A stretch of 29,633 nt of DNA from a virus (IMGVR_UViG_3300009152_000150:1-29633); one strand, 5' to 3'; positions 2-21,938 are shown, counted from the first letter of the stretch. Program-made: numbers and translations. Notes: a model not told the origin generated them from the sequence alone.

Positions 2-1348
2 AACTACATTACCAACTTCGACTTCTTAAATCAGTATCTTCCTGATACTTATGAGAAAGAATTTGAGCGTTATGGTAATAGAACAATCGCATCTTTCTTA
101 CGTATGGTAGGAGCAGAGATGCCTTCTAATTCTGACCAAATCAAATGGGCAGAACAAGGACGTTTACACATTAAGTACACAAGTTGTACTTCAGCAGCAG
201 CAGCAGCAGCTTCAACAGCTACTTTTACTGTGGCTGATAGTGGTGTGACTTATATCGCTATTCGTGTTGGACAAACGTTGATGATTCAAAACAACTCAAC
301 AGGTGTTTTCAACAAGGCTATCGTAACTGCAGTTCCTTCAGCAACTACTTTCACAGTAGCTTACTACGAGACTGCAGGTCAAGCATTCGCTGTTTCTACA
401 GCTTGTACCGTATTCATTTATGGTTCTGAGTTTAAGAAAGGAACTAACGGAATGGTTGGTTCATTAGAATCAGAAGATGATATCTACAGCAACAACCCTA
501 TTATCATTAAAGATAAGTATGCGGTTAATGGTTCAGATATGGCTCAAATCGGTTGGGTTGAAGTTACTACTGAGAACGGTGCTACAGGTTACTTGTGGTA
601 TTTGAAATCAGAGCACGAGACTCGTTTACGTTTTGAAGATTACTTAGAGACTTCAATGATTGAAGCTGTTCCCGCTGCATCTGCTTCAGGTGCTGCAACT
701 GCAGGCTTTATTGGTTCTCAAGGTATTTTCTACGTTGTAAACAATCGTGGTAACGTTTGGGGTGGTGGTACTCCAACAACTTTATCTGATTGGGATTCTA
801 TCGTTTCTCGTTTAGATAAGCAAGGTGCTATCGAAGAGAACGTAGTATTCGTAAATCGTGGATTGAGTTTCGATATTGACAATATGTTGGCTCAATTGAA
901 TGGCTATACCGCAGGTAGTGCTTCTCAATCAGCTTCATACGGTCTTTTCGATAACGATGTTGATATGGCGTTAAATTTAGGTTTCACAGGATTCCGTAGA
1001 GGTTATGATTTCTACAAGTCTGATTGGAAATACTTAAATGACCCAACAATGCGTGGTGGTTTAAGCAGTGCTGCTGCAACTGCAACCGGTACTATTACAG
1101 GTTTAATGGTTCCTGCAGGTTCTACTTCAGTGTACGACCAAATAATGGGAAAGAATGCTAAGCGTCCTTTCTTACACGTTCGTTACCGTGCTTCTGAAGC
1201 TGAAGACCGCAGATACAAGACTTGGATTACAGGTTCTGCCGGTGGTGCCGCTACAAGCGACTTAGATGCAATGGAGGTTAACTTCCTTTCTGAGCGTTGC
1301 GTATGTACCTTGGGTGCTAACAACTTCGTGTTATTCCGTTATGGATAA
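2..1348 (+). CDS. Probable major capsid protein, 5' end cut off by the window
   Basis: The reading frame is open from base 2, so the gene starts upstream of the window. The ATG at 104 is internal. About 448 residues are visible. Near the visible N-terminus is a segment with DQIKWAEQGRLHIKY, followed by a beta-rich, Ala/Thr/Val-rich stretch that looks like an inserted surface domain, then mixed alpha/beta sequence to the C-terminus. Length, composition, position ahead of the connector and tail genes, and its own strong terminator at 1367-1399 fit a highly expressed capsid protein. I recognise the sequence style from capsid proteins of Bacteroidota podoviruses, including crAss-like ones, but cannot prove homology. 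The alternative is another abundant head protein. A run of six AGC triplets at 193-210 encodes an alanine tract. Confidence 0.65.
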   Translation, partial: NYITNFDFLNQYLPDTYEKEFERYGNRTIASFLRMVGAEMPSNSDQIKWAEQGRLHIKYTSCTSAAAAAASTATFTVADSGVTYIAIRVGQTLMIQNNSTGVFNKAIVTAVPSATTFTVAYYETAGQAFAVSTACTVFIYGSEFKKGTNGMVGSLESEDDIYSNNPIIIKDKYAVNGSDMAQIGWVEVTTENGATGYLWYLKSEHETRLRFEDYLETSMIEAVPAASASGAATAGFIGSQGIFYVVNNRGNVWGGGTPTTLSDWDSIVSRLDKQGAIEENVVFVNRGLSFDIDNMLAQLNGYTAGSASQSASYGLFDNDVDMALNLGFTGFRRGYDFYKSDWKYLNDPTMRGGLSSAAATATGTITGLMVPAGSTSVYDQIMGKNAKRPFLHVRYRASEAEDRRYKTWITGSAGGAATSDLDAMEVNFLSERCVCTLGANNFVLFRYG

Positions 1349-2204: not shown

Positions 2205-2234
2205 AGAGGGTACTGATTGTGCCCTCTTTTTTTT
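2205..2234 (+). terminator. Rho-independent terminator
   Basis: A 9-bp stem at 2205-2213 pairs with 2219-2227, with one wobble and a TGATT loop. The T-run from 2227 to 2234 follows directly. It ends the transcript of the gene at 1428-2171. Confidence 0.85.
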
Positions 2235-2245: not shown

Positions 2246-2258
2246 TAAAAAAGAACTA

Positions 2259-4133: not shown

Positions 4134-7100
4134 ATGGCAAATTTTACAAGAAACTTCATAGCAGGTAGAATGAATAAGGTAGTAGACGAACGTTTGCTTC
4201 CTGAGGGTGAGTATGTTGACGCTATGAATATTAGGATGGGTTCAACCGAGAACGCTGAGATGGGAGTAATAGAGAATACAAAAGGTAATCTTTCTCTTAC
4301 TACATTAAAATATAATGGAACATCTCTTAGTTCATCAGCAAGATGTATCGGTGCAATTGAGGATAGTGCAAATGAAACCATATATTGGTTTGTTCACGAC
4401 TCAGCTTTCCCGGTAGGTGCTACAGGTAAACTTGACCTAATTGTTTCTTTTAACGTTTTTACCAACATATTAACCTATCACGTAATAAGCATTAACGATG
4501 GTGCAAACGTTAATACTGTGTTAAACTTTAACCCAAGTTATTTGATTACGGGTGTAAATATATTAAACGATTTATTGTTTTTTACGGATGACTACAATGC
4601 ACCTAGATTTATAAATACCAATAGAAATTACGCTAACCCCGTATCTAATATAGACCAATTTACAGCAGAATCTTTGCTTGTGATTAAGAAGCCACCGGTA
4701 GAATCTCCTGATGTAGAGCCTATTGTAACTAATGGACAGGAGAATTTTTTAACTACAAGATTTATTTGTTTTGCTTATAGATACAAATATATTGACGGAG
4801 AGTATAGTGCTACATCTCAGTGGTCTCAACCTGCTTTTGTACCTAATGCGTTTAGTTTTAGTACTGAGAGTTTTTTAAATGAGGGTATGACCAACTTCTG
4901 CAACTCAGCAAGAATTACATATAACTCAGGAAGTTCTCTTGTAGTTGGTGTTGATTTGCTATTTAAAAGAGCAGATGGTACTGTTATAAAAGTTATTGAA
5001 AAACTTGACAAGGCTAACTTAGGTCTTGCAAATAATACAGAATACCAATATATATTTACCAATAGTAAAATATTTACAATACTATCTGAGTCTGAATTAT
5101 TAAGATTGTATGATAACGTACCTAGATACGCTAAGGCTCAGACTATTATGGGAAATAGATTGATGTATGGTAATTACATTGAAGGATACGATTTGGTAGA
5201 CCAATATGGTGTTCCCGTTAAGTTTGAATATACTACTGATTTGGTTTCATTACCTATTGGTAATTCTAATATAAATGATGCTACTTCAACAGGAAATTAT
5301 AATATTGACGGAAGCGTAAGTGTTCCAAGTTCAATAGTTTCATTTGATTTAACAGGTCAAAATTTAGTTGCAGGTTCTGCTGTTAGTTTGGCAGTAACAA
5401 TTGAGCACGCTCAATTTTCAGGTCAAACTCCATTCCCTACACAAGAAACTACTGACGTAAGTTTAAACTTTTCATTTTTTTTAACTAAAACGTACACATC
5501 TGTATATGCATTAGCGACAAGTGTAGAGTTTCAAACTGCAGTTGGTACATCAGCAAACATTCAATCATTTGCAACCGCTTGTACAGGAACAACATTTACT
5601 GATTCAGTTAACTGCTTGTTGCCAAATACTTTAGATTCAAATACAGCTATAGGAAGTGGTATAAGTGCAGTTGCACAACCTATTGGTATTGTAACAAGCC
5701 CAAGCAGTAATTGGATTGGATTCCAATTTATTGCACAAAAATTTGTTAATAATGTACCTAGCCCTACTCAAACTTTTTATGAGTACTATCAAGTTGTTCT
5801 AGCAGAGGCTACTTTTCAAGAAGTAGCTAATCCTCAGAGTTTACATAGCAATCGTGATTATGAGATTGGTATAGTTTATATGGATGAGTTTAATAGAGCA
5901 TCAACTGCTCTTGTTAGTCCTAATAATACAGAGCACGTTCCTTGTGGATTGTCTGCATTTAAAAATTCAATCAAAGTAACAATACCTGCTACTCAAAAAC
6001 CTCCGGGATGGGCTACTAGGTATAAGTTTGTAATAAAACCTGACCAAGAGAATTATGAGACAATTTATTGTAGCATATTCTTCCAAGACCCTTTAACCAA
6101 CAATGCATACTTTTTATTAGAAGGAGAGAATGCAAGAAAGGTAGAAGCAGGAGATAGATTAATTGTGAAAGCTGATTCAAGTGGAGCAACATCATCTTGC
6201 GTATATGCAACTGTTCTTGAGAAGTCCTCTCAAGCGTCAGACTTTATTGAAATACCAACTGAATTAGACCCTTCAGTATTTATACCAATTCCTGCGGGAG
6301 TTTATATGAAAATAAACCCAAATAGCTTTAATACAGTTCAAGATGAGAATGCTATTATTGCTCCGGGTAAAAAAACAGCAAGAGCGGCAAGTCCGGGACC
6401 AATTGGACCGGGTACTTTCCCTATTTTAGATTATCCAATGAATACTGCTCAAACAGCAGGATTCGACCCTGCTCATCCAACTTGGGAGTTTTCTGATTAC
6501 ACAGTTCCTGCAGGAAGCAGAATTGTATTAGATATAAAACAATTTAGAAATGGTAGCGGATGTCAGTGTGAAGAGAGAACAAATACTTTAGAAAAAACAC
6601 TTGTTTCTTCAACTACATATGATAATATGTATGATTGGTTTGTTGGAGATAATATAGAGCAATTTTTAGATGATGGTCTTAGATATGCTTCTTGTGGAGA
6701 TGCTATACCTGAAAATACATTTGTTGCGGGCACGGGAAATCCCGTAGTTCCTACTGATGGTGGAATTAACTATTATCAATTTTACAGGAATCCGACAACG
6801 AATGAATTGTATTTAATGATAACAGGCACTAGAAGTTGTCCGGGAATTAACTTCCCCGGTTCACGTGCTTCTAATGTTGAGGTTAATATTACCGTATTCC
6901 GTTCTGAAAAGAATTTAATATTTGAAACAGAACCAACTGACGCTCTTCCTGATGTATTTTTTGAAAATGAAATGTCTTTTGCTATTACGGGTGGTAACCA
7001 TATGGGTAACATCCAAAACCAAAATATAGGAGCAGGTACATCTGCTATAATTGATACTAAGTTTTTTAATTGTTTTGCATTTGGAAACGGGGCAGAGAGT

Positions 7101-9026
7101 TATAAGATTCGTGACTCAATCATTGGGAACTCTTTTAACTTTGGAAACAGAGTGACAAGCGTTTCCGCTCAAGACTATAAGGCAGCAGATAGATTTGCTG
7201 ATATTACATATAGTGGCATATATAGTGCTGAGTCAAACGTAAATAAATTAAATGAATTTAATTTAGGGTTGCTTAACTATAAAGTTTGTGAGCCATCTTT
7301 TGGAGAGATATTTATATTAGACGGAAGACAAACGGACGTCCTTGTATTACAAGAAGATAAGATTTCATACGTATTAGCTGATAAAAATTTATTGTCAGAC
7401 TCTACGGGCGGTGGTGTTGTGGCTTCAGTTCCTGAGGTATTAGGCACACAGATTGCTCGTAGCGAAAAGTATGGTATTAGTTTTAATCCTGAGAGTTATA
7501 TTCAATGGGGATACGATAGATATTTTACTGACGTAAAGCGTGGGGCTGTTATCCAACTACGTGGAACTTCATATTCTAGTGAGGAACTAAAAGTTGTGTC
7601 TGAAATGAATATGAGGACTTGGTTTAGAGATACATTTAATGAATCTTTTAATACTCAAAAACTTGGTGGTTTTGACCCTTATATGAATGAGTATGTTTTA
7701 ACAAGTAACACTATCGCTATACCATCAAATCCTCAGTGTATAAATTGTGGTATTACTCAGACATTTACATTGTCATCTGCTACAAGTGCAACAACAACTT
7801 ATTGCGTTGACTTAGGTCCAACTGTAGGAAACACAGACATTAACTATACTGTTTCTTCAATAAGTGCAAGTGGTAATTTCCAAATAGTAGCGACTTACAA
7901 TGCAATAGCTTATTCTACAGGAGTAGTTACTACAAGTGGTACGTTGACTTTTAATAAGAATAATGTATCAGTAGAAACTGTAACTCTTGTAATAACTTAT
8001 ATAGGCGATATTACATTAAGCGTAGAGGTAGAGTGTGTTCAAGCTGCATCATTAAGTATTGTTCAAATTGTACTTACTAATGATTATGATTCAGGTCAAA
8101 CCATTAATAGTCAGTATAGGTATGTAAGTGGTTCATTTACATCTCCATTACAATCAACATTTGTGACATTTGCTAGTGGAACAACGAATCCGCTTGTATC
8201 GTTATATAATATAACAACAAATTATGTAGGTACGGGTGGTTTCCCTCCTGCAGGAAGCACAATGAGTTTGATTTCAAATAAACTTGCTACTGATACTTTT
8301 GTGTTTAACCCTGCTACCGATAAATTTAGATATCTTGTTAGCAATACTTTATATAACAATACTACGGCAAACATAAATTCATTGTTAGCATTAACAACAA
8401 TTGCTACGCCTAATCAAGGTGGTGGCAGTAATAATTATGCAAACTTTACGGTGCCTGCTCTTCAAACTTATTTGTATTTAGTATGGGATTTTAGGTCTTC
8501 AGTAGCTGTAGAACTATGTTATTCAAATTTAAATACAGAAGATGCTTGTTGTGGTTGTGAATTATCCCCTATTTCATATAATTGCATTGATGGTAATTGT
8601 ATAGACCCGGGAGATGGAACAGGAACGTATGATAACTTAGAGTCTTGTGAAGCCAATTGTGCTGCACCAACAACGGTTACATTAGATTGGAACGTTGGTC
8701 AGCAATCAGGTGGAGCATTAACGATATATAATAACGTGATGTCTCAAATATTAAGCGTAACATCTACAGCAGGAAGTGCTCAAAGTGGAACAATATATCC
8801 ATTGATAAGCGAGTTACCTTACACCATCCGTGGTGAGTGGGTGTCAGGTTCAGGAAACATTATACAATTTAACTTATGTGATATAATAGGTGGCGGAACA
8901 ATATTTACAAGTGGAGAGATTACTAACGTAGAGGGTTATGAGGACTATTTAGTTAGCCCAACCCCTGTTCACGGATTAGTAAATCTAACTGCACAGAATG
9001 TAACACCACCTACTTGTCCTGTATAA
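4134..9026 (+). CDS. Large tail nozzle/muzzle-like structural protein
   Basis: A 1630-residue protein. The N-terminus carries NKVVDERLLPEGEYVDAMNI (residues 14-33), a hallmark of long tail nozzle, 'stabilisation' or muzzle proteins of podoviruses and crAss-like phages. The rest is dominated by beta-strand, Ser/Thr/Asn-rich sequence with scattered aromatic residues, as in propeller-type tail tubes. There is no signal peptide or membrane segment. Near the C-terminus (residues about 1481-1509) is a Cys-rich module centred on DPGDGTGTY, which recurs twice in the next gene, followed by about 120 residues of beta-rich sequence that may be surface-exposed. It probably forms the tail exit end and may present the receptor-contacting module. 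The nozzle call rests on the N-terminal motif, length and order. Confidence 0.7.
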   Translation: MANFTRNFIAGRMNKVVDERLLPEGEYVDAMNIRMGSTENAEMGVIENTKGNLSLTTLKYNGTSLSSSARCIGAIEDSANETIYWFVHDSAFPVGATGKLDLIVSFNVFTNILTYHVISINDGANVNTVLNFNPSYLITGVNILNDLLFFTDDYNAPRFINTNRNYANPVSNIDQFTAESLLVIKKPPVESPDVEPIVTNGQENFLTTRFICFAYRYKYIDGEYSATSQWSQPAFVPNAFSFSTESFLNEGMTNFCNSARITYNSGSSLVVGVDLLFKRADGTVIKVIEKLDKANLGLANNTEYQYIFTNSKIFTILSESELLRLYDNVPRYAKAQTIMGNRLMYGNYIEGYDLVDQYGVPVKFEYTTDLVSLPIGNSNINDATSTGNYNIDGSVSVPSSIVSFDLTGQNLVAGSAVSLAVTIEHAQFSGQTPFPTQETTDVSLNFSFFLTKTYTSVYALATSVEFQTAVGTSANIQSFATACTGTTFTDSVNCLLPNTLDSNTAIGSGISAVAQPIGIVTSPSSNWIGFQFIAQKFVNNVPSPTQTFYEYYQVVLAEATFQEVANPQSLHSNRDYEIGIVYMDEFNRASTALVSPNNTEHVPCGLSAFKNSIKVTIPATQKPPGWATRYKFVIKPDQENYETIYCSIFFQDPLTNNAYFLLEGENARKVEAGDRLIVKADSSGATSSCVYATVLEKSSQASDFIEIPTELDPSVFIPIPAGVYMKINPNSFNTVQDENAIIAPGKKTARAASPGPIGPGTFPILDYPMNTAQTAGFDPAHPTWEFSDYTVPAGSRIVLDIKQFRNGSGCQCEERTNTLEKTLVSSTTYDNMYDWFVGDNIEQFLDDGLRYASCGDAIPENTFVAGTGNPVVPTDGGINYYQFYRNPTTNELYLMITGTRSCPGINFPGSRASNVEVNITVFRSEKNLIFETEPTDALPDVFFENEMSFAITGGNHMGNIQNQNIGAGTSAIIDTKFFNCFAFGNGAESYKIRDSIIGNSFNFGNRVTSVSAQDYKAADRFADITYSGIYSAESNVNKLNEFNLGLLNYKVCEPSFGEIFILDGRQTDVLVLQEDKISYVLADKNLLSDSTGGGVVASVPEVLGTQIARSEKYGISFNPESYIQWGYDRYFTDVKRGAVIQLRGTSYSSEELKVVSEMNMRTWFRDTFNESFNTQKLGGFDPYMNEYVLTSNTIAIPSNPQCINCGITQTFTLSSATSATTTYCVDLGPTVGNTDINYTVSSISASGNFQIVATYNAIAYSTGVVTTSGTLTFNKNNVSVETVTLVITYIGDITLSVEVECVQAASLSIVQIVLTNDYDSGQTINSQYRYVSGSFTSPLQSTFVTFASGTTNPLVSLYNITTNYVGTGGFPPAGSTMSLISNKLATDTFVFNPATDKFRYLVSNTLYNNTTANINSLLALTTIATPNQGGGSNNYANFTVPALQTYLYLVWDFRSSVAVELCYSNLNTEDACCGCELSPISYNCIDGNCIDPGDGTGTYDNLESCEANCAAPTTVTLDWNVGQQSGGALTIYNNVMSQILSVTSTAGSAQSGTIYPLISELPYTIRGEWVSGSGNIIQFNLCDIIGGGTIFTSGEITNVEGYEDYLVSPTPVHGLVNLTAQNVTPPTCPV
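8574..8660 (+). repeat. Cys-rich DPGDG module, copy 1 (in the nozzle gene)
   Basis: Encodes a 29-residue unit of the form SYNC-x4-C-x-DPGDG-x-GTY-x5-C-x3-C. The four cysteines and the DPGDG turn match the two copies in the following gene. Confidence 0.8.
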
Positions 9027-10476: not shown

Positions 10477-10887
10477 ATGGAATTATATATACGAGAACTG
10501 AACGAAACAGACTACGATGAGATACTTGTAGGATGGTGGAAAGATTGGGGATGGAGTGCTCCTCCAAGAGATTTTCTTCCTCGTGATGGTAAGGGAGGGA
10601 TAATGGTTTTAGATGATGAGGTTCCGGTTTGTGCAGGGTTTATGTATATCACTAATTCAAAGGTAGCTTGGGTAGATTGGATAATATCGAACAAGGAATA
10701 TACTAAGAAGCCACAAAGAAAAGACGCCATTAAGTTATTGGTATCAGCATTAACAGATATATGCAAGACGGCAGGCAATAAATATATTTATGCATTAATA
10801 AAAAACGAAAGTCTTATAAATACGTATCAGGAATTAGGCTATGAAAAAGGAGATAATTACACAACAGAAATGATAAAAAAATTATAA
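10477..10887 (+). CDS. GNAT-family N-acetyltransferase
   Basis: A 136-residue protein with the GNAT layout. It begins with a strand-helix (YIRELNETDYDEIL), continues with beta strands carrying GGIMVLDDEVPVCAGFMYI, then the core strand VAWVDWIIS, and next a basic loop (KKPQRKDAIKLLVSALT) in the position where GNAT enzymes bind the acetyl-CoA pyrophosphate. The C-terminal helix-strand has NTYQELGYEKGDN, the usual GNAT 'F/Y-x-x-x-G-F/Y' ending. The substrate is unknown. Such genes are often found among tail genes in Bacteroidota and marine podoviruses, where modification of a virion protein or a host target has been proposed. It is one base from the next start, so it is co-transcribed with the internal virion genes. 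Confidence 0.8.
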   Translation: MELYIRELNETDYDEILVGWWKDWGWSAPPRDFLPRDGKGGIMVLDDEVPVCAGFMYITNSKVAWVDWIISNKEYTKKPQRKDAIKLLVSALTDICKTAGNKYIYALIKNESLINTYQELGYEKGDNYTTEMIKKL

Positions 10888-10888: not shown

Positions 10889-11728
10889 ATGGCAGCAATA
10901 ACAGCAGCAACAGCAGCAACAATAGCAGCAGCTACAAGTTTGGCAGCAACGGCAGCTACAACTACAATGTCATTTGTTCAGGCAGGCAAGCAAAAAAAAG
11001 CACAGCGTCAAGCTGAAAAAGATGCTGATGAGGCTATGGCTAATGCACGTAAAAAATTAGAAACAAACTTTTATGCTGCACAAGGCATAAAAAAAGAACC
11101 ATACGAATTAGAAAGAGAAGCATTGTTGGCTCAGGGTGCTCAAGCTATTCAAGCAGGCGTAGAGAGTGAAAGAGGTGCTGCTGCAACAGCGGGTCGTGTT
11201 CAATTAGCACAACAACAAGGACAAGCAGGAGTTAGAACAGCTATGGGTCAAGAGATGATGGCATTAGAAAACAAACAATTAGCGGAAGAAAGTCGTTTAC
11301 GTGATGTTGGTGTTCAATTAGATTTAGGCGAAGTAGAAGGTGCTCAATTAGCTGCAGCAAATGCAGAAAGATTAAGAGCACAATCAATAGAACAAGGCGT
11401 GCAAGGGATAACAAGTTTTGCAAAACAAGCAGCCGCTGCTCTTCCATTGTATGGTGCAGGTGCAGCCGATGTAAGTGGCGTAAGTGCTACATCACTAGGA
11501 CAGCCCGAATATATGCCTAAAGCAAATTTAACTATGCCTGCTGCTCCTCAGACTATTAATCCAAATCTTCAGCCTGCTAATATTAGTCCAATAGGAGCAT
11601 CTGCTAAAGCACCTTTTCAAGGTTATCAAGCCCCAATGCCTCTTTATTTACAAAAACAACAAGATTTTAGATTTTATAATCCATCTACGTATAACAATCC
11701 TTTTGATATATACGGTAAAAGAAATTAA
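10889..11728 (+). CDS. Ala-rich internal virion protein, gp14-like
   Basis: A 279-residue protein. It starts with an Ala/Thr-rich hydrophobic segment (residues 1-30), likely a membrane-interacting helix. A long charged coiled-coil-like region (about 35-170), rich in Ala, Gln, Glu and Arg, follows. Another Ala-rich hydrophobic stretch is at about 178-195, and the Pro/Gln-rich C-terminal tail ends in aromatic residues. This matches the profile of T7 gp14-type ejection proteins, which leave the capsid and build the channel across the cell envelope. The position immediately before two larger putative internal proteins supports it. Homology is not demonstrated. Confidence 0.6.
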   Translation: MAAITAATAATIAAATSLAATAATTTMSFVQAGKQKKAQRQAEKDADEAMANARKKLETNFYAAQGIKKEPYELEREALLAQGAQAIQAGVESERGAAATAGRVQLAQQQGQAGVRTAMGQEMMALENKQLAEESRLRDVGVQLDLGEVEGAQLAAANAERLRAQSIEQGVQGITSFAKQAAAALPLYGAGAADVSGVSATSLGQPEYMPKANLTMPAAPQTINPNLQPANISPIGASAKAPFQGYQAPMPLYLQKQQDFRFYNPSTYNNPFDIYGKRN

Positions 11729-11730
11729 CT

Positions 11731-13518
11731 ATGGCAACATATTATAAATATGCAGAACGAAGTGCGGACAGTCAGGTCAATTGGGCTGAAATAGGGAAGG
11801 GTATCTCTGATATGCTTGCTGACGAAGTAAAGATTCGTGAAGAAAAGAAAGCTGCAATTGATAAATCAACACGTGAGTTTCAGCAAACTTTACAGAATGC
11901 TCCTCAAGGTCAATTTCAAGATGCTAATAAGTTTACCAATGACTATGCTCATTCTATGATGGAGCAGCAAATGATTGATACCAAGTTATTAAAGTCGGGT
12001 AAAATGAAGTTGCAGGATTATACATTAAGAAGACAAAACTATATAGACGGAACAAATACGTTATTTGATTTACAAAAACTATATCAAGAGAATTATAGAC
12101 AAAAAATGGAAGGTGTTCAAACCGGAGAATTTCAACCATTAACAGGTGCTAATATGGCATCAGTTGAGGGATTTGGTGATTTTTCAAAATCAAAAGCCGT
12201 AATTGACCCTGCAACAGGAGTTGTAAATGTTGGTATATTAGAACCTGACCCAAACAATCAGGGTGTAATGAGATTAACCAATGATGTAGTTCCTGTTAAT
12301 GTTATTAGGGGAAAAATATTAACAAATATACCCGCTTTTAAAGTTGAAGAGGCAATGAATAGCACTGTTAAAACTTTAGGAAATAGAATAAAAGTATTAC
12401 AAGAAATTGCAACTCAAACAAAAGCAGGAAGCATTACAAAACTAACAGGAGGAGCAATAGATTCTGCAAAATATCCTCAATTTAAAGATGATGTAGATAA
12501 ATTTAATAAAGCAGTAGATGAAACTGTAAAGTCTTATTTTGCAGACCCATATCATTTATCATCTGTACTTACAATGCAGGTAGGTAATTATGATGGTACA
12601 TCATTTACGTATGATAAAGAGTTAGCTAAAAAAGACCCAAGCAAATTGCTTTTAAAAATAAATCCAAGCACAGGTCTTGGTATATTAGATGAATCAGGTG
12701 CTCATTATAAAGCACAAGAACAAGAAGCTAAGGATTGGGTTAAGACTCAATTGTTAGCTAAAATGGATAGCAAAGTAGAGGTTGACTTAGGAGGATTTGC
12801 TCCACAACCAAGACAGCCATCTCAATATGAATATGAGAGAGCAGATGCTAGAAAAGCAGGGAAAGCTGCAGTAGGTGCTTGGAATCAATTATATACAGGC
12901 AAAACAGCGGCTGAAAAGCAAGCAGCAGCAGATATATTATTAGGTACTCCAAATGCTCAGAGTTTAGGGTTACTTGGTATTGATGTAAGCACTCCGGGTC
13001 GTGTTAAACTTACGTATGCTGACTCTAAAAAGAATAGAGATATTCCAATGATTGACGCAAGTGGTAAACCTATTAGCATATATGATTTTGCTGCTATAGG
13101 AACAGAACTTCACGGAGTAACAGATAGAAATGAAGCTGTAAAAGCAGGTGGTGGCGGAAGTGGATATGGTGCATTAACAAAAGAGCAATTAAAAGACGTT
13201 AAAGCTACAAGAACAGGAGGCGGAGGAATTGCTCCTGTAGTAAATATACTGCCTGAATTGTTTACCGTAAGGTCAGGACCGTCAACTAAATCATTACAAA
13301 GTTTATTGGGTCCTTCTTTTAAAGTAACCGATATGGGAGGTCCTTTTGGAAATGATGTTGAAGTTACTGCACCAAATGGTCAGAAATTTACTTATAATGC
13401 AAACTTAAAGAAAGATGAAGCTGCAATAGCAAAAGCAGACCTTGAACAATTTATAAAAGTTAATGGAGCACCGGCAGGTGGTTCAGGTGGTGGTGGGGTT
13501 GATTACGGTAACAAATAA
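11731..13518 (+). CDS. Putative internal virion protein, gp15-like by position
   Basis: A 595-residue protein, hydrophilic and mostly helical, rich in Lys, Glu, Gln and Ala with no membrane segment. The N-terminal 60 residues include WAEIGKGISDMLADEVKIREEKKAAID, a start typical of ejected internal proteins. Gly-rich linkers occur near residues 472-480 (GGGGSGYG), 495-500 and 580-591, separating a C-terminal domain with beta-rich sequence. It lies between the gp14-like gene and the giant polyvalent protein gene, with gaps of 2 and 11 bases. It is therefore likely to be part of the same ejection complex. No enzymatic motif was found. Confidence 0.55.
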   Translation: MATYYKYAERSADSQVNWAEIGKGISDMLADEVKIREEKKAAIDKSTREFQQTLQNAPQGQFQDANKFTNDYAHSMMEQQMIDTKLLKSGKMKLQDYTLRRQNYIDGTNTLFDLQKLYQENYRQKMEGVQTGEFQPLTGANMASVEGFGDFSKSKAVIDPATGVVNVGILEPDPNNQGVMRLTNDVVPVNVIRGKILTNIPAFKVEEAMNSTVKTLGNRIKVLQEIATQTKAGSITKLTGGAIDSAKYPQFKDDVDKFNKAVDETVKSYFADPYHLSSVLTMQVGNYDGTSFTYDKELAKKDPSKLLLKINPSTGLGILDESGAHYKAQEQEAKDWVKTQLLAKMDSKVEVDLGGFAPQPRQPSQYEYERADARKAGKAAVGAWNQLYTGKTAAEKQAAADILLGTPNAQSLGLLGIDVSTPGRVKLTYADSKKNRDIPMIDASGKPISIYDFAAIGTELHGVTDRNEAVKAGGGGSGYGALTKEQLKDVKATRTGGGGIAPVVNILPELFTVRSGPSTKSLQSLLGPSFKVTDMGGPFGNDVEVTAPNGQKFTYNANLKKDEAAIAKADLEQFIKVNGAPAGGSGGGGVDYGNK

Positions 13519-13529: not shown

Positions 13530-16500
13530 ATGGACGAACAAGTAATTGATGACTTATATAGTAGAGCAGTCTCAAAAGGTTATGCAAAAAGTAAAGGAGA
13601 GTTTGTTCAGTTACTTCATAGCGATAATGAAGTCTTTAACGATATGTATTCATACGTAAAAGAAAAAGGTTACCAAAAAACGCCTGATGACTTTTCATCT
13701 TTAGTTGGTAAAAAAAAAGTCGGTACGGAATCTCCTTTGGCAAATGGTTCTTTGGCTTCACAAAAACCTACTGAAACAGTTATTGTTGGTCCAATGGGGA
13801 TGACGGGTTTGCAAAGAACAAAAGAATATAAGCCCGCAGACGAGTTTGAAGGTAAGGGCGTTGGGTATATTGTAGGAGATTTACTTAAGACGGCAGGAAA
13901 GGGTGCGGTTAAATTCCCTGCAGATGTTTTAGAAACAGCATCAATAGCAACTGCAGGAATAAAAAATTTAATAGCCAAGACGGGAGCAGTAGAAGAGTCC
14001 GATGCTTCAAAGTTTACCATATACAAGGGTGCTCAAGAATACAAAAAATTATTAGATGAAGTAATCCCAACGGATAAAGATATTTCAAGTGGTTTTTGGG
14101 GACAAACTGCAAAGGCTATTGGTGAAATGGTTCCAATTATTCTATCAGGATTTACAGCAGGAGGAGCCAAAACAGTAGCTATGGCTGCAGCAAAGAAAGG
14201 AACAAAACTTGAGTCAGTTATAAACTATGGTAAGGGGTTGGCATCAAGAATGGCTACGCCTCAAGGTGCGTTAACAATTTCTCAAGTAGCTGCACCATCT
14301 TATGAGCAAGCTAAAAATGAAGGGGCTACAGAAAATGAAGCATTAACTTATGCTATTCAAAATGCGTTGGTTTCCTACCCAATAGAAATGCTTCCTGTAG
14401 ACGGGTTGTTTAAGAGATTAGACAGGGCGTTGGTAGGGAATAAAGGAGTTGAAATTTTAAAAAGAGCGGTTATTGGCGGTTCCGAAGAAGCCATCACTGA
14501 AGGTATTCAGAATATATATGAGAATGTAAGTGCCAATCAAATTTATGGTACGACAAAAGAAATACTTGACGGTGTTGGTAACGCTTCTGCAGTTGGCGGA
14601 ACTGTTGGTGCAATAATGAATGGTGTGCTTACGGCTTTATTAGGAAGAAGAGCAAGGGCTACAACAACAGAGGAAAAAGAGCAGTTAGATAAGTCAATAC
14701 AAGATGTAAAAGGGAAAGTAGAGCAAGTAGATTCTAACAATAAAAAGTTTGTAGAAACTATTAATATTCTTGAGCAATCTAAGCCAAGGACTTTAGCTTA
14801 TGGTAGTGCAGAGTATAATTTTATGGAATCTACTGACGGGAATCTTGAACTTGCACAGGATGATATAACTAAAGAACAAGCAGAAGGTATAATTAAAAAC
14901 CTTTCAAGTACATATAAAAAGATTGAGTTTTCAGTTGAAGAGGTAGAGCCTGAAGACCCATATAAACCTACTACATATAAAGTTATTGGTAAACCAATTA
15001 AAACAGAACAAGATGCCATTCAAGAACAAACAACAGATGAAAGCGTGCTACGCACAGAACAACCCGAAGTGGGATTGCAGCAAGTGGTCGAAGGAGACCA
15101 AGGACTTGAAGTCGCTGCCACAGGGACCCAAGAAGTCGCTCCTGAAAGTGGGACGCAAGAAGTAACGCCACCAATTAAAGAGGTTCACAATACTAATAAT
15201 AATTTATCAGATATAGGAACTGAACAAGAATATGCAAATTATCTTAAATCTATATTTCCAAATAGCAAAGTAAAAGACATAGTATATCATAGAAGCAATG
15301 AAAAGTTTGAAGAGTTTGATGATACCAAAAGAAATAAAGAAACAGGTAATCTTTTTGATTTTTCTAAAACAAAAGATAACGTTCAATATGGAGAAAATTT
15401 ATATCCGGTTATTCTTAATGTAAATAATTTAGGAGAAGGATTTGTTTTGAATGAAGGAGTAGATGGAACAACAAGTGAGGTAATGGGTGGGGAAAAGATA
15501 TATTCAGTACCAAATAGCGAACAAATTCATATCTTAGGTAATAAAGCAGATATAGAAGGGTTTAAGAAATGGAAACAATCACAGCAAGTGTCTTCAAAGA
15601 CACAAGCACCTAAGTTTGTTAGAGACGTCTCTGCCCTTATTACTCCGGCTACAGTGCGTGGATTTAGTCCAATTACTGAAAGGATTAAGAAGTTGTCATT
15701 GAACTATGATAAACTTGTTAAGCAATACGCTAAAAAGAAAGACCCTAAAGTTCTTGCTAAAATAAAAACTGCGGAGACTCAAATATTAAATGATACCAAG
15801 CAGGAGATTATCGACTCAGTTGCACAAGTGGATGGTGTGGCTGTTCAGTTTAAAGATACTAAGCGTGGTTTATGGGATAAGAAGTTTGAACCATCGTTCA
15901 ATATGACTTTGTCAGTTAGTCCTCAGGCTGATACTAAAAAGTTAAGCGATTTATTATTTGACTTTGCAGAGAAGTATTCTCAAGATGCATTTATATTAGA
16001 AACTGAATCAGAGTTGCACGATGAATGGGTTGATGGCAAAATAAATACACCTCTTTCTGAAAAAGATAGTAATGGATTAACTAATTATCCACAAATTATT
16101 TATACATTTGCTGAACCAATAACTGACGAACAATTGTCAGACCTGTCTGTAGAGTTAGAAAACAATGGTATTAGTGCATTTAATATAAATAATAATGAAC
16201 TTCAGGTATCAGTAATTTTTACGCAAGACCAAGATATTAATTTAACTAAAGATGAACAATATGAAGAACGAAAAAGAGATTACAAATCAAGACTTGAATC
16301 AACAGAAAACGCTGTCTTTTCCGTATTCGGAAGCAATGGAAATGGCTCGCTCGACATTCGCATCAAGAAATCTTCTTACCAAGGAGCAACCAATGAAGGC
16401 ACCGATGACCAAACAAGACAATACGATAGGAGTGACGTTCTTAAAGCGTTCCAAGAATCAACCACAAAAGTAGAAACACTTGCAGTTGAACTTGCTGACT

Positions 16501-19500
16501 TACGTCAAAAAGAAATAGACTTACAAAAAGAAGGCAAAAAATTATCTCCTGAAGACCAAACTAGATTTAACGATTTAATTAAAAAGGTACAGCCCGTTGT
16601 ACAACGTACATTTGAGGCAAATAAAAAACTTTACGAAGACGCTAAGGCTGAGGTAGAGGGTATCGCTCAAGATGCTATCTCTAAAGTTGATGCATCCATA
16701 TCTCCATTCCCAATCAAACGTGCCGAGCGTGCATCTGTTAAAGCTATCAGGTGGTATAATGCATTTACCGAAAAACTTGGTGATGGCTCACGTGTAAATA
16801 TAGTAGTAGATACTGACGCTAATGCTGACAAAGTATTTAAAATTATTGACAAGAAGTATCCGGGTGATACAGGAGTAAGAAGAATTACCGAGACTACAGA
16901 CTTAGGTTATCCAAAAAGACTTATTGAGATTCGTACATCTAATGGTACGATTGCAGAAATTCAAGTGATTACCAATGAAGCCTACTTGGCTAAGGATGGT
17001 ATCAAAGGATTTACCGGAAATGAAAAACAAAAAGCTACAGCCAAACAAAAATTAGATGCAGTACGTGCTCGTCTTGGATGGAATATCCCTGATGGGCTTG
17101 GTCATTATTTTTACGAGATTCAAAGAGATACCAATGTAGATGATACTTTAAGAGATGAGGCTGCAAGATTAAGCGACTTATACTACGATGGATTTACCAA
17201 TCCAAAGTCTACACTTGCTGAATCATTTATGAATGATGTAGAAGCATTTAAAAATAATGTAGATGCTGCTGATAAATCACAATGGGACGTAGGCAATAAT
17301 GGTAAGGCTCCACAATCTTTAATAGATTATAAACCTGTTCAAGCTGAAGCTGTACTTATGATAGAAGAAGAGCAGTTTGTTCCTATGAAAGTGTCTGATG
17401 TTAAGAATGATGCGTTTACAAAAGACAACGCAATAGACTATATTGAAGATGAAAAAGACACTGATAGCGGAAGAACTGTAACATATATCTCATCACTTAC
17501 CGTTGAAGCACGTAATATAGATGGTGAACCTATTGGAACAATAACGAAACTTACTGATGAAGATAAAATATTCTCATTTACTGCAACAGATATTGATGGT
17601 AATGAGATTAATTTTGATGGATTTGAGACATTAGGAGAAGCCAAGCAAGCACTTGCTGACAAGAATAATAAAATTCAGAAGAAAGAATTTGATAAAGAGC
17701 AAAAGAAGCAAGCTAAAGAAAAAGCTAAAGTTGAAGCTAAAAAAGCTAAAGCTAAAGCAAAGGCTCAGCCTACAGTGGAAGAACAAGTAACAGGTGCATT
17801 AGATGATTTACTTGCATTAGACCCTAACGATAAAACTACATTAAAGAAAATCTCAAACAGCCTTGACCAAGTAATTAAGGATATTGACAAGTTTGAAAAA
17901 GAAAATCTTGGTGTAAATATAGCATTGCCCATAATGAAGACCATCATTAAGGCAATTAAGGTATTGGTTGATGCAGGTGTTGTATTGCAAGATGCAATTA
18001 AAAGAGTCGCCAAAGATAATAATGTAAATAGTCGTGATGTAATTGATGGTATCAATGCCATTAGTCAAATTTCTCCTATTCAATCTCAGTATGATGCATT
18101 AATGGTAAAGGCTGATGAGTTAATTGCACGTCAAAAATCAAGAAATATAGCTGACGCTAAGATAGTATCTAACTTAGATACGTTTATTAGAAACTCAGAT
18201 ATTTATAAAGAGAGTAATGATGCACAGAAAAAGATAATGGAGCGTGAGAGTAGGCTTAAAATGGGAGTTAGTGCCAAGCGTGCCGTGTCAATTGGGCGTG
18301 TACTTGGTGCATTAAAAGATATTACCAATATATCAAGAGAAGAAAAGATGCTTGTCATCAAGCAAATTAGAGACTTATCAAGAGATGCAGCTAAGGAATT
18401 AGCTAAGGATATTAGAGAAATGGCATCAAAAGGAAAGATTACATCAATCCAAGCCGCTAATATTGTATCAAGATTTGGCAAAGTAAATATGCTTAATGAG
18501 ATTTCAGTGTCAAACTTTGTTGACTATATGGCTAAAGTATTTGCAAACGCAGAGTATGCTGATAAGATTGACGTAGCTAAGAGTAAATTAAAGATGGCTA
18601 AGAAAAATATTGTTACAAAGATTGGTATTGCTGATGGTTTAGTTGGAAAATTAAATCAATTATTTTCGATGAACCCAACACTTATACCTAATGAATATCT
18701 TGGTCGTTACTTAGAATTAGTTGATATGTTTGGTGCAAGACAAGCAGTGCTTACGCTTGACGAGAAGTCTGCAGTGACTAAAGATGTTCAAGCAATTCTT
18801 GATGAGATTGACAACGAGCAGTCAAAAGCTGATGAGTTAGCTGATAGATTCAATGCTTCTGAGAATAAAGTATTTAAAGATGACGAGTTAGACTACGCAG
18901 CATCAATTAAAAAAATGCTTGACGGTAAAGAGATTGACGAGAAGGAAGCAGAGACTATGCGTAAATATAAAGAGGACATTGCTCCTCAGGTTGAAGAGAC
19001 TGAACTTACTGAAGATGAATTAGCGACAGAAAGAAAAGAACTAACTGATGCAGTAAAAAAATCTACTATTGATGGCTCCGGTCTTTCTACTAAAGATGAA
19101 AGAGATACAGTAAAAGAATTAAGCAGACTTATTGGTACTGACGCAGTAGATGGCTTAACCAATACTGAATTAAAAAACCTGCTTAAAGTTATTGATAACA
19201 TTAACAATAACTACTTACCTCACTACGGAGAAATAATGTTAGAGAAGTTAGATGGAATTAATAATGATAAGGTTTTAACTAACGCTGTTGAGAAAGGCAA
19301 GATGTATAAGTTTTCTCAGTTGTATTCAAAAGTAAAAGCTGCAGTTGCAATGCAAGGAAGAACAGGTGTGTTAGAAATGATTAGAAGAAACCCTTTATTT
19401 TATATTGACCAATTATTTGGAAACTTTAAAACGAAAGAAATATTTAATTCATTATTCAATGAGCCTGCAAAAGCTGTTGCTATATTTAAAAATCAATTAA

Positions 19501-21938
19501 ATAGAGTTCAAAACATATTAGAGAAAGCAGAGCAAAAAGTTTCAAAGTCATTTAAACTTGACCCAAATAAGACAACAATGTCTAAGTTTAAGATGATGAC
19601 CTATATGGTTCAGCTTGAATTTGAATCTAACAAAGGGAATAAAGAAGTAAATCCTGCATCTGAGTATTTAAAAGCTACCATCAAGCATATTGACGCAGGC
19701 AAGTCTCGATTTGGAGAACGTGACGCAGAAATGCTGCAAAAAATACTTAATGAATTTGCTCCTGATGGCAACATTGACAACGAAAAATTGTATAATTCAT
19801 TTAATCAAGCTGAGAAAGATGCCATTAAAGATATTCGTGGTATAAACGAATCACTAAGAGAGAAGGCTGAATTTACTGCAGCTATTATTCGTGGTGATAG
19901 GATTGACCCATTGAATAACTATGTGCACTTGAATGTATTACACGAGTATCAGCCAAATGATTTAACATCAGGCAGTGCGTTTGTAACTGAGTATAACAAT
20001 GCGATGAGACCATCTACTAAAGCAAAGTCTTTGATAGCGAGAACAGGTAAAGTATCTCCATTGAACTTTGACGTATTTGCAAGTGCTCAGCGTGGTGCTA
20101 AGTTTGTATTGATGGATTACAATTTAACAAGACCAATACGTACAGCTCGTAAGACAATCAATGGCACCATTGCTAATTTAGAAAGCAAAGGAAGAGTGCC
20201 TAAAGAAAAAAGACAAATAATAAATGCTATCAATGCTGCATTTGAAGAAACTATTGAAGGATTATTGACAAATACATTTACTCAAGATTCATTTTTTGAT
20301 ATAGCTTCTGATTATATAAGCAGACAAGGATACCGTGCAGTACTTGCAGGAACAAGTAGGTTTATATCTGAGTTAAGTTCAAACATTGGCTTTGCAGTAA
20401 TTAGTGACCCTAAAGCACTTGCTACAGGTGTAAAATACAGAGGTGTTATTATGTCTTCTGATGCTCCTATGATAATGGAGAACTTAAAAAGTAAACAAAC
20501 TAATAGAATATTCCCTACAGATACATTATCAGGAAGATTAGTCGATACATCAATATTAGGTCAAGCAAGCGGTATTAGAGGTGCTGTATCAAAAAATCCT
20601 GTAAAAAATAAAATTCAGCAGATTTATAACTTATCCGGTAAGAAATATGTTAATGCAGTTGAGCTTCAGGCTGATGCTTTAATATCTACACCGGATAAGG
20701 TTACTATGAGACCTATGTGGTTTGGAGCATTTGCTAATCAATTTTTAAATATAACAGGCAAAGAAGTTGACTTTGATAAGATTGCAGCAAATGATGAGGC
20801 ATATATGGAAGAAAATAAAGAGGCTCTTGATAAAGCTACCGAGCTTGCAGATGAAAGGTCTGTAATGGTTGGAGCTACAGACAATCCATTTATGGGAATC
20901 TTAAAGGGAACTGTAAAGCCTGACCAAAGTTCTTCATTAAAAGCATTTAATAACTTCAATAACTTTATGACAAAGTTCTTGATATTTGAATACGTTACAG
21001 CACGTACAGCTATTAATGCAGCGGTTGGTAACGGTTCACTGACTAAGGAACAAGGTGGTGCTGTTCTTGGAGCGGTTGCAACACGTATGGTTTTGTATGG
21101 ATTAGTTCTTCAAATGATGGGCACAGGTCTTATGGGATTATTCTTTGATGATGATGAGCCTGAAACAGAAAAGTCATTTATGCAGAAACTTGGTCAAGCA
21201 TTCGCTTCTGCATTTAGTTCATTGTTGATTGGAAGAGACTTTGGTAATGCTATTAAAAATGTATTAAACTATGGAATAGAAGAAGCAAATGAAAAATACC
21301 TTGATTTTTTAAGAGAGGGAGAATATGACCCGTATAAAGACGGTATTGCTTATACATTAATACCAAGAGACGATAGCAGACAAACAGATTTAGGTAAACT
21401 GCTTATGAATATGGGAGGTTCTTATACACCTGCATTAAATACTGCTGCTCTTATCTTTAAAAAAGCAACAGAGAAAGAAAAAGTACAAGAAGAAGCTATT
21501 GCGAGGAGTGAAAGAGAACTTAAGGTAAGGGTTCCTCTTGAGGTATTAGGTAATGCAGGTCTTATTCCTTTGTATAAAGATATTCGTAAGGCTGTAATGA
21601 AAGATATGTATAAAGACCTTGAGAAAGCTGAGAAGACTAAAGGAGATAAAAAGAAAGTTGAATCTGAAAAACTTCAAGGATTTAAAAACCAAGAGGATAT
21701 GAAACGTTATGATTACGACCTTTGGTATAGAACATTCGGACCTGACGCTGTTGACTTTGATGCAAAGCAAGCAGAAAAAGCTATTAAGAAAACAAAAGAT
21801 AGCTTGGAGAGAGCAATGAAAGATGAGATGTATGACTATACTCCTAAATCTAAAAAAGGATTTGGCTCTTCAGGATTTGGTGGAACGCAAAGTAAAAGTA
21901 AAGGTGGATTTGGAACAAGTAAATTTGGTAAAAATTAA
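13530..21938 (+). CDS. Giant polyvalent ejected protein with ART-like, RelA/SpoT-like and LPD38-like regions
   Basis: A 2802-residue protein. Residues 1-65 hold two matching units (DLYSRAVSKGYAKSKGEF and DMYSYVKEKGYQKTPDDF), a common N-terminus of Bacteroidota polyvalent proteins. Hydrophobic stretches lie near 190-225 and 350-370. Residues about 570-690 look like an ADP-ribosyltransferase of the polyvalent-protein type: IVYHRSNEKFEEFD (584-597) near its start and VPNSEQIHILG at the end. Residues about 1055-1205 look like a RelA/SpoT nucleotidyltransferase, with RAERASVKAI, a GY motif, IAEIQVITNEAY and GHYFYEIQ. A Lys/Ala-rich linker is near 1380-1412. Residues about 2125-2330 resemble LPD38 (NYVHLNVLHEYQP, TGKVSPLNFD, AQRGAKFVL). 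A membrane-like helix lies near 2515-2540, and the tail is Gly/Phe/Lys repeats. It is probably injected into the host with the DNA. Domain calls are by eye and catalytic competence is not established. Confidence 0.7.
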   Translation: MDEQVIDDLYSRAVSKGYAKSKGEFVQLLHSDNEVFNDMYSYVKEKGYQKTPDDFSSLVGKKKVGTESPLANGSLASQKPTETVIVGPMGMTGLQRTKEYKPADEFEGKGVGYIVGDLLKTAGKGAVKFPADVLETASIATAGIKNLIAKTGAVEESDASKFTIYKGAQEYKKLLDEVIPTDKDISSGFWGQTAKAIGEMVPIILSGFTAGGAKTVAMAAAKKGTKLESVINYGKGLASRMATPQGALTISQVAAPSYEQAKNEGATENEALTYAIQNALVSYPIEMLPVDGLFKRLDRALVGNKGVEILKRAVIGGSEEAITEGIQNIYENVSANQIYGTTKEILDGVGNASAVGGTVGAIMNGVLTALLGRRARATTTEEKEQLDKSIQDVKGKVEQVDSNNKKFVETINILEQSKPRTLAYGSAEYNFMESTDGNLELAQDDITKEQAEGIIKNLSSTYKKIEFSVEEVEPEDPYKPTTYKVIGKPIKTEQDAIQEQTTDESVLRTEQPEVGLQQVVEGDQGLEVAATGTQEVAPESGTQEVTPPIKEVHNTNNNLSDIGTEQEYANYLKSIFPNSKVKDIVYHRSNEKFEEFDDTKRNKETGNLFDFSKTKDNVQYGENLYPVILNVNNLGEGFVLNEGVDGTTSEVMGGEKIYSVPNSEQIHILGNKADIEGFKKWKQSQQVSSKTQAPKFVRDVSALITPATVRGFSPITERIKKLSLNYDKLVKQYAKKKDPKVLAKIKTAETQILNDTKQEIIDSVAQVDGVAVQFKDTKRGLWDKKFEPSFNMTLSVSPQADTKKLSDLLFDFAEKYSQDAFILETESELHDEWVDGKINTPLSEKDSNGLTNYPQIIYTFAEPITDEQLSDLSVELENNGISAFNINNNELQVSVIFTQDQDINLTKDEQYEERKRDYKSRLESTENAVFSVFGSNGNGSLDIRIKKSSYQGATNEGTDDQTRQYDRSDVLKAFQESTTKVETLAVELADLRQKEIDLQKEGKKLSPEDQTRFNDLIKKVQPVVQRTFEANKKLYEDAKAEVEGIAQDAISKVDASISPFPIKRAERASVKAIRWYNAFTEKLGDGSRVNIVVDTDANADKVFKIIDKKYPGDTGVRRITETTDLGYPKRLIEIRTSNGTIAEIQVITNEAYLAKDGIKGFTGNEKQKATAKQKLDAVRARLGWNIPDGLGHYFYEIQRDTNVDDTLRDEAARLSDLYYDGFTNPKSTLAESFMNDVEAFKNNVDAADKSQWDVGNNGKAPQSLIDYKPVQAEAVLMIEEEQFVPMKVSDVKNDAFTKDNAIDYIEDEKDTDSGRTVTYISSLTVEARNIDGEPIGTITKLTDEDKIFSFTATDIDGNEINFDGFETLGEAKQALADKNNKIQKKEFDKEQKKQAKEKAKVEAKKAKAKAKAQPTVEEQVTGALDDLLALDPNDKTTLKKISNSLDQVIKDIDKFEKENLGVNIALPIMKTIIKAIKVLVDAGVVLQDAIKRVAKDNNVNSRDVIDGINAISQISPIQSQYDALMVKADELIARQKSRNIADAKIVSNLDTFIRNSDIYKESNDAQKKIMERESRLKMGVSAKRAVSIGRVLGALKDITNISREEKMLVIKQIRDLSRDAAKELAKDIREMASKGKITSIQAANIVSRFGKVNMLNEISVSNFVDYMAKVFANAEYADKIDVAKSKLKMAKKNIVTKIGIADGLVGKLNQLFSMNPTLIPNEYLGRYLELVDMFGARQAVLTLDEKSAVTKDVQAILDEIDNEQSKADELADRFNASENKVFKDDELDYAASIKKMLDGKEIDEKEAETMRKYKEDIAPQVEETELTEDELATERKELTDAVKKSTIDGSGLSTKDERDTVKELSRLIGTDAVDGLTNTELKNLLKVIDNINNNYLPHYGEIMLEKLDGINNDKVLTNAVEKGKMYKFSQLYSKVKAAVAMQGRTGVLEMIRRNPLFYIDQLFGNFKTKEIFNSLFNEPAKAVAIFKNQLNRVQNILEKAEQKVSKSFKLDPNKTTMSKFKMMTYMVQLEFESNKGNKEVNPASEYLKATIKHIDAGKSRFGERDAEMLQKILNEFAPDGNIDNEKLYNSFNQAEKDAIKDIRGINESLREKAEFTAAIIRGDRIDPLNNYVHLNVLHEYQPNDLTSGSAFVTEYNNAMRPSTKAKSLIARTGKVSPLNFDVFASAQRGAKFVLMDYNLTRPIRTARKTINGTIANLESKGRVPKEKRQIINAINAAFEETIEGLLTNTFTQDSFFDIASDYISRQGYRAVLAGTSRFISELSSNIGFAVISDPKALATGVKYRGVIMSSDAPMIMENLKSKQTNRIFPTDTLSGRLVDTSILGQASGIRGAVSKNPVKNKIQQIYNLSGKKYVNAVELQADALISTPDKVTMRPMWFGAFANQFLNITGKEVDFDKIAANDEAYMEENKEALDKATELADERSVMVGATDNPFMGILKGTVKPDQSSSLKAFNNFNNFMTKFLIFEYVTARTAINAAVGNGSLTKEQGGAVLGAVATRMVLYGLVLQMMGTGLMGLFFDDDEPETEKSFMQKLGQAFASAFSSLLIGRDFGNAIKNVLNYGIEEANEKYLDFLREGEYDPYKDGIAYTLIPRDDSRQTDLGKLLMNMGGSYTPALNTAALIFKKATEKEKVQEEAIARSERELKVRVPLEVLGNAGLIPLYKDIRKAVMKDMYKDLEKAEKTKGDKKKVESEKLQGFKNQEDMKRYDYDLWYRTFGPDAVDFDAKQAEKAIKKTKDSLERAMKDEMYDYTPKSKKGFGSSGFGGTQSKSKGGFGTSKFGKN
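15588..15603 (+). repeat. Palindrome GTGTCTTCAAAGACAC, copy B
   Basis: Lies inside the ART-like part of the giant gene. Together with six flanking bases it is identical over 22 nt (15583-15604) to the reverse complement of 28848-28869 next to the tRNA-like gene. Confidence 0.9.

What the first reader, a model, noticed from the sequence alone, without database searches (positions are those of the whole stretch)
15200..17150. Giant ejected protein combining an ADP-ribosyltransferase-like and a RelA/SpoT-like region
In the 2802-residue protein, residues 570-690 carry IVYHRSNEKFEEFD and VPNSEQIHILG, like ART domains of polyvalent proteins, and residues 1055-1205 carry RAERASVKAI, GY, AEIQVIT and GHYFYE, like the (p)ppGpp synthetase fold. 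Established: polyvalent phage proteins often carry ejected effector domains, and both of these folds act on nucleotides. Inference: the phage may inject enzymes that modify host targets or signalling nucleotides before transcription starts. Having both in one polypeptide with an LPD38-like end is unusual to my knowledge.
Basis: partly seen in the sequence, partly recalled or inferred. Interest (0 to 1): 0.78.

Follow-up and report, generated by a model that had tools for sequence, protein, structure and literature searches.

The report
Swappable alarmone-synthetase cargo in phage protein
A giant virion-type protein of an uncultured phage of Bacteroidota carries a well-conserved enzyme domain related to the bacterial toxin Tas1, which makes alarmone nucleotides, in a slot where sister phages carry quite different cargo; this suggests the phage delivers exchangeable host-reprogramming enzymes, a new variant of a known strategy.

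Summary
P0001 (window 13530-21938, 2802 aa) has a RelA/SpoT-type pyrophosphokinase domain at residues ~1034-1222. Its closest solved relative is the (p)ppApp synthetase Tas1 (profile E=1.1e-8; Foldseek E=8.9e-8, rank 1). Donor-site, Mg-binding and acceptor-stacking residues are invariant in 17 relatives, but the acceptor motif is YPKRL instead of the known GxN or SxH forms. The ART-like stretch (~574-667) is a weak, shortened ART-PolyVal match (His and Asp kept, strand-2 Tyr replaced by Asp), found only in this phage's near-identical records; activity is doubtful. LPD38 was not found. Of 34 full-length relatives sharing the C-terminal body, 14 carry the synthetase and 20 carry other modules; one pair is about 92.6% identical in DNA on both sides with only the cargo exchanged. 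Gene order and homologues point to a virion protein; ejection is inferred. RelA/SpoT domains in polyvalent phage proteins were described in 2017, and ART plus RelA/SpoT is not unique. New here: host group, acceptor motif, documented cargo exchange.

The parts
13530..21938 (+). Giant polyvalent-type protein P0001, 2802 aa
   Evidence: Intact ORF; phrog_32588 over 1927-2712, E=4e-67; distant homologue of the elemovirus giant 'structural protein'
13530..13739 (+). N-terminal repeat region (res 1-70), shared in recognisable form by most relatives and by the Manatee Spring phage giant; possible packaging/targeting part (inference)
   Evidence: Alignment and HMM, E=6e-14 to the Manatee phage giant
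14997..15185 (+). Conserved linker (res 490-552) that marks the 5' edge of the cargo slot
   Evidence: Conserved in many RSD+ and RSD- relatives and in elemovirus and Manatee giants
15249..15530 (+). ART-PolyVal-like stretch (res ~574-667); H587 and D645 kept, strand-2 Tyr position is D610; probably degenerate; replaced by GNAT, ParB-like, coil or nothing in relatives
   Evidence: Pfam E=4.1e-4 partial, hhalign 95.5%, slot comparison
15597..16409 (+). Companion A (res ~690-960), travels with the synthetase domain
   Evidence: In all 14 RSD+ giants, in none of the RSD- giants (motif ITPATVR)
16629..17195 (+). RelA/SpoT-type pyrophosphokinase (RSD), res 1034-1222, Tas1-like; K1063, K1071, D1085, R1088, Y1127, E1143, Q1145, H1192, Y1195, E1196, R1199 invariant
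   Evidence: dN/dS 0.04-0.13
15186..17279 (+). Cargo slot (res ~553-1250) replaced by other modules in 20 of 34 full-length relatives
17280..21935 (+). Conserved C-terminal body (res 1251-2802)
   Evidence: 63-100% identity over a 400-aa probe in IMG/VR loci, 41 found
11731..13518 (+). 595-aa protein immediately upstream, syntenic in related phages
   Evidence: phrog_35506; 30% identity, E=2e-35 to MW202828, where it also lies next to the giant gene
10889..11728 (+). 279-aa virion-type protein
   Evidence: phrog_13764 'virion structural protein', E=1.2e-12
4134..9026 (+). 1630-aa virion structural protein of the same operon-like run
   Evidence: phrog_14478; homologues annotated structural in Elemovirus and in Cellulophaga phages such as phi13:2 (Pachyviridae)
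2..1348 (+). Virion structural protein at the window's left end
   Evidence: phrog_13704, E=4.4e-105

Best explanation
P0001 is a giant, polyvalent-type virion protein of a podovirus-like phage of Bacteroidota. Its N-terminus, linker and C-terminal body form a scaffold, and the middle is an interchangeable cargo slot. In this lineage the slot holds a Tas1/Apk-like pyrophosphokinase with a ~270-aa companion. The enzyme most likely enters the host with the DNA and moves pyrophosphate from ATP to the 3'-OH of an acceptor, probably a purine nucleotide (adenine most likely, from kinship with Tas1), giving (p)ppApp- or (p)ppGpp-like products. These would lower ATP/GTP and throttle host transcription, translation or nucleotide-based defence early in infection. 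Shown: fold, invariant donor-site and Mg residues, purifying selection, cargo exchange, virion-gene context. Inferred: packaging, ejection, activity, acceptor and effect. The ART-like piece is a secondary, lineage-specific and probably decayed cargo.
For: Fold and kinship. Donor-site spacing K1063-x7-K1071, catalytic D1085, G-loop Y1127 and E1143 agree in order and approximate spacing with FaRel2 K66/K74/D90/Y128/E145. Selection: RSD dN/dS 0.04-0.13, the lowest or near-lowest segment in each comparison. Cargo: 14 RSD+ and 20 RSD- among 34 full-length giants; synthetase and F2 module never together; L096/L066 pair with about 92.6% identical DNA flanks and only the cargo exchanged. LPD23 above its cut-off, and zincin and ART-PolyVal hits, in sister cargo mark the polyvalent class. 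Virion context. No HD_4 hydrolase in the giant-protein phages, as expected if the producing cell is lysed anyway.
Against: The acceptor motif is YPKRL in every giant-protein member, unlike GxN (Apk) or SxH (RSH) as given in PMC12226406, so the acceptor may differ or activity may be altered. No proteomics of any member; no annotated phage record carries a close copy of this domain (50,697 records). Depleting ATP early could harm a lytic phage. Ejection is argued from synteny and analogy.
Confidence: 0.6

Rival explanations
1. The domain pyrophosphorylates tRNA CCA ends (FaRel2/PhRel/CapRel-like) and so blocks host translation, rather than making free alarmones.
For: CapRel is the second-best fold match. 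The GxN/SxH nucleotide signature is replaced by a basic KR pair, which could favour RNA.
Against: Sequence kinship is with the (p)ppApp-making Tas1, not with tRNA-modifying enzymes. PMC11782079 reports that tRNA-type FaRel2 has a smaller positive acceptor patch, the opposite of adding KR.
Confidence: 0.15
2. The enzyme acts late in the producing cell, or against superinfecting phages, and is not ejected as a host-takeover effector.
For: The gene lies in the structural gene run. PMC12691689 describes the toxSAS CapRel acting in phage defence; prophage-encoded relatives are discussed as exclusion factors (own knowledge).
Against: Fusion to a >1500-aa virion-type body is hard to explain for a free cytoplasmic exclusion factor; alternative cargos in the slot include zincin and ART modules typical of injected polyvalent proteins.
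Confidence: 0.15
3. The domain has lost catalysis and serves structurally (e.g. binding nucleotide or nucleic acid inside the head).
For: The acceptor motif is changed in all giant-protein members.
Against: K1063, K1071, D1085, Y1127, E1143, H1192 and E1196 are invariant down to 23% identity; the whole block is exchanged for unrelated modules while the body stays intact, so it is not needed for assembly.
Confidence: 0.1

Closest known systems
Tas1/Apk1 of Pseudomonas aeruginosa ((p)ppApp synthetase, T6SS effector, PDB 6ox6)
   Same: Closest solved relative by sequence and fold; same order of donor-site, Asp, Tyr, Glu and GH..YE motifs
   Different: ~24% identity in the fold alignment; acceptor motif GYPKRL instead of GYSGVN; carried in a giant phage protein; no immunity gene seen
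Apk2 MuF polymorphic toxins of temperate phages (PMC12226406)
   Same: Phage-encoded, virion-associated carrier fused to an Apk-type domain
   Different: MuF carrier with C-terminal toxin and adjacent IapK/Aph1 immunity; here an internal module of a giant protein without detectable HD_4 hydrolase
Polyvalent proteins with RelA/SpoT domains (Iyer et al. 2017, PMC5512222)
   Same: Giant multi-domain phage proteins with effector domains, RelA/SpoT among them; sister cargos carry LPD23, zincin and ART-PolyVal
   Different: [quoted passage not shown] here a podovirus-like lineage of Bacteroidota, with natural cargo exchange documented
ART-PolyVal (PF18760), H-Y-D type
   Same: His in strand 1, DG, Q-I motif and YG segment align
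   Different: ~40 aa shorter, strand-2 Tyr position is Asp, below Pfam's cut-off
Elemovirus and Pachyviridae (phi13:2) phages
   Same: Syntenic structural genes; elemovirus giant shares the linker and part of the body
   Different: No synthetase domain found in the elemovirus, phi13:2 or Manatee giants

Membership tests
RelA/SpoT (RSH/SAS) synthetase superfamily | Pol-beta-like pyrophosphokinase fold | tested here: met
   AF2 model; the 11 Foldseek hits with E<=0.001 are all RSH/SAS enzymes
RelA/SpoT (RSH/SAS) synthetase superfamily | Donor-site Lys pair, Mg-binding Asp and Glu, acceptor-stacking Tyr | tested here: met
   K1063, K1071, D1085, E1143, Y1127 invariant in 17 sequences
RelA/SpoT (RSH/SAS) synthetase superfamily | Pyrophosphate transfer activity | not testable with these tools
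   Needs biochemistry
Apk ((p)ppApp synthetases, Tas1/Apk2) | Sequence closer to Tas1 than to other RSH enzymes | tested here: met
   Among solved structures only Tas1 is found by sequence, E=1.1e-8
Apk ((p)ppApp synthetases, Tas1/Apk2) | Syn3 acceptor motif GxN | tested here: not met
   YPKRL (KxL) in all giant-protein members against GxN
Apk ((p)ppApp synthetases, Tas1/Apk2) | Syn2 with Arg at Asp+3 | tested here: met
   D1085-x-x-R1088, as in Tas1 DLAR
Polyvalent protein | Giant multidomain phage protein with disparate effector domains | tested here: met
   RSD plus ART-like here; GNAT, zincin, LPD23, ART in sister slots
Polyvalent protein | Recognised polyvalent-associated (LPD) domain in P0001 itself | tested here: not met
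   No LPD hit in P0001 at E<=1; LPD38 negative without a positive control; LPD23 only in relatives
Polyvalent protein | Packaged in virion and ejected | not testable with these tools
   Synteny and annotation only
ART-PolyVal | Family profile match over the domain | tested here: inconclusive
   E=4.1e-4, 60 of 140 positions, below cut-off; hhalign 95.5% over 101 columns
ART-PolyVal | H-Y-D active site (Iyer et al. 2017) | tested here: not met
   H587 and D645 align, strand-2 Tyr is D610; reference domains mostly have an aromatic residue there

The most novel reading that the evidence does not exclude
A family of virulent Bacteroidota phages delivers, from an exchangeable slot in a giant virion protein, a pyrophosphokinase whose altered acceptor motif makes a new product or modifies a new target (other nucleotide or RNA), to suppress host growth or nucleotide-based immunity at the start of infection.
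Probability: 0.25. Interest if true: 0.8.

Novelty: new variant of a known kind. Interest (0 to 1): 0.55.

Why it matters
If the enzyme is delivered, these phages start infection by making alarmone-type nucleotides or spending host ATP, a step usually credited to bacterial stress responses, toxins and anti-phage defence. The natural pair with exchanged cargo (L096/L066) shows that the middle of a giant virion-type protein is a plug-in site, which makes cargo function and delivery testable, and it gives a catalogue of candidate takeover enzymes, including the uncharacterised F2 module.

Tried and rejected
Chance similarity of the RelA/SpoT motifs: rejected. Pfam scan of whole P0001: no domain above its cut-off; the weak ribosomal L13 hit (NCBIfam E=7e-4, far below cut-off; PDB E=0.64) is treated as chance. 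ART structure from a single sequence: pLDDT 45, uninformative. Searches for more ART homologues in viral contigs found only near-identical records, or one relative of the crAss-like query. Adjacent hydrolase immunity: none in giant-protein records. Bacterial genomes: one truncated relative in an Ignavibacteriales MAG. Virion proteomics: the Baltic Flavobacterium phage paper held does not mention mass spectrometry or elemoviruses. tblastn of the 279-aa neighbour: no phage match. A T7 record was fetched to compare ejected proteins, but no comparison was made.

Full report
What is there. The window is one complete IMG/VR record of 29,633 bases, probably a fragment of a phage genome (relatives are up to about 64 kb). 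An intact ORF at 13530-21938 encodes P0001, 2802 aa. It follows a run of virion-type genes: 2-1348, 2217-3197, 3209-4132, 4134-9026 and 10889-11728 match PHROGs annotated as virion structural proteins. Homologues of the 1630-aa gene occur in Elemovirus, Cellulophaga, Tenacibaculum and Maribacter phages and in an uncultured spring phage. In the elemovirus, in phi13:2 (Pachyviridae) and in the spring phage MW202828 a giant gene lies at the end of the same run; it is annotated structural in the first two. I therefore take P0001 as a virion protein by synteny; this is an inference, not a measurement.

The RelA/SpoT-like region. phmmer of the whole protein against the PDB gives Tas1 (6ox6) at E=7.5e-5 over residues 1034-1221. 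A profile built only from 15 giant-protein sequences gives Tas1 at E=1.1e-8 and nothing else significant. AlphaFold2 with 17 relatives gives pLDDT 82.6. Foldseek ranks Tas1 first (E=8.9e-8, TM 0.72 on the target), then CapRel, Mycobacterium Rel, B. subtilis SAS1 and SaEAS. The invariant residues across the 17 sequences, down to 23% identity, are K1063, K1071, D1085, R1088, I1091, Y1127, E1143, Q1145, H1192, Y1195, E1196, R1199 and others. They agree in order and approximate spacing with FaRel2 K66, K74, D90, Y128 and E145 (PMC11782079). One feature is odd: PMC12226406 gives the acceptor signature as GxN in (p)ppApp synthetases and SxH in RSH; all giant-protein members read YPKRL there. R1088 at Asp+3 matches the Apk pattern. 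I conclude that the domain is probably catalytic and Apk-like, with an uncertain acceptor. A pairwise Nei-Gojobori count gives dN/dS 0.04-0.13 for residues 1040-1222, the lowest or near-lowest segment in each comparison.

The ART-like region. Taken alone, residues ~546-685 match Pfam ART-PolyVal with E=4.1e-4, but over 60 of 140 positions and below the cut-off. hhalign with nine phage ART-PolyVal domains gives 95.5%. His (H587) and the Asp of the DG motif (D645) align; the strand-2 position that is mostly aromatic in the references is D610; the stretch is about 40 residues short. Iyer et al. define the family by H, Y and D. It is found only in near-identical records of this phage. I call it a probable, likely decayed ART relative. 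The single-sequence model was useless.

The cargo slot. In closer relatives the ART-like place holds a GNAT (L005, L006; Pfam E=1.4e-5), a ParB-like stretch by eye (L007), another ART-like stretch by eye (L010), coil or other sequence (L011-L013) or almost nothing (L008, L009). A search with the C-terminal body found 41 loci. Of 34 with a full-length giant ORF, 14 carry the synthetase and 20 do not; a few of these records are near-duplicates (L060-L062, L092-L093). In the 20, homology to P0001 stops at or before about residue 600, in most cases near the linker, and resumes between about 1250 and 1550. Twelve of the 20 carry an alternative module here called F2 (HDFYGH...GEENAW...TTETRGQN; phrog_3170, no PDB match). 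L075 and L097 carry HExxH zincin-like segments, LPD23 above its cut-off and an ART-PolyVal hit. The synthetase and F2 were never seen together. The clearest case is L096 against L066: 92.7% nucleotide identity over 5.9 kb before the slot and 92.5% over 6.2 kb after it, with about 1.93 kb (synthetase block) against about 1.30 kb (F2) between. In three comparisons (L006, L010, L012) dS in residues 700-1222 is 0.36-0.46 against about 1.0-2.0 in the body, which fits spread of the block by recombination.

How it most likely works. The scaffold (N-terminal repeat, linker, body) is packaged and ejected, and the cargo acts in the host. A Tas1-like enzyme would move pyrophosphate from ATP to an acceptor, draining ATP or making alarmones, and so quiet the host while the phage takes over. 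Packaging, ejection, activity and acceptor are inferred. The lack of an HD_4 hydrolase in these records (many are fragments) fits a phage that lyses its host; the standalone relative in gut phage L014 does have a hydrolase-like neighbour.

What is known. Iyer et al. 2017 (PMC5512222) described RelA/SpoT domains in polyvalent proteins of spirochaete and epsilon-proteobacterial (pro)phages and fused to MuF. Apk2 MuF toxins make (p)ppApp (PMC12226406). None of 50,697 annotated phage records has a close copy of this domain; the one match is the 27%-identical gut phage protein. I rate this a new variant of a known kind.

Limits. No proteomics, no biochemistry; host assigned from relatives only; cargo boundaries are approximate; LPD38 was not detected but the test had no positive control. 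'By eye' assignments (ParB-like, R-S-E ART, intein) are leads, not tests.

Noticed in passing
L066:6554-7741 and 11 other full-length giants (plus partial ones): F2 module (HDFYGH...GEENAW...TTETRGQN) alternates with the synthetase block; only phrog_3170 matches, no PDB relative. Looks metal-binding or enzymatic by eye.
   Followed up: partly
L014:10606-11220 and 11541-12014: Gut phage with a standalone 204-aa Tas1-like protein (E=2.7e-18 to Tas1) next to a 157-aa ORF with a weak, partial HD_4 hydrolase match; a possible toxin-immunity pair.
   Followed up: partly
L036:7484-10540: MuF-like protein apparently interrupted by an intein-like insert (by eye, no Pfam hit), ending in a synthetase domain.
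   Followed up: no
L011: Giant protein shares P0001 up to about residue 1685, then the C-terminal body is unrelated or very divergent; exchange or chimeric assembly.
   Followed up: no
L010, residues ~660-780 of the giant: Slot with TVYRGVP...GDFVTTNKQLATDYAG, like an R-S-E type ART by eye; no Pfam match.
   Followed up: no
window 10477-10887: GNAT-like gene among virion genes (phrog_17252; weak acetyltransferase phrog_1249), syntenic in MW202828.
   Followed up: partly
window 25708-28131 (-): Primase-like protein with BT4734-like_N, a DUF5906 match just below cut-off, and partial similarity to PrimPol_Db, a CRISPR-associated primase-polymerase model.
   Followed up: no
L039:7395-8450: Truncated synthetase ORF (352 aa) in an Ignavibacteriales MAG contig, 53% identical; possible prophage remnant or frameshift.
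   Followed up: no
L033: More distant giant with the same synthetase, an HEGLH motif and LPD23 above its cut-off.
   Followed up: partly
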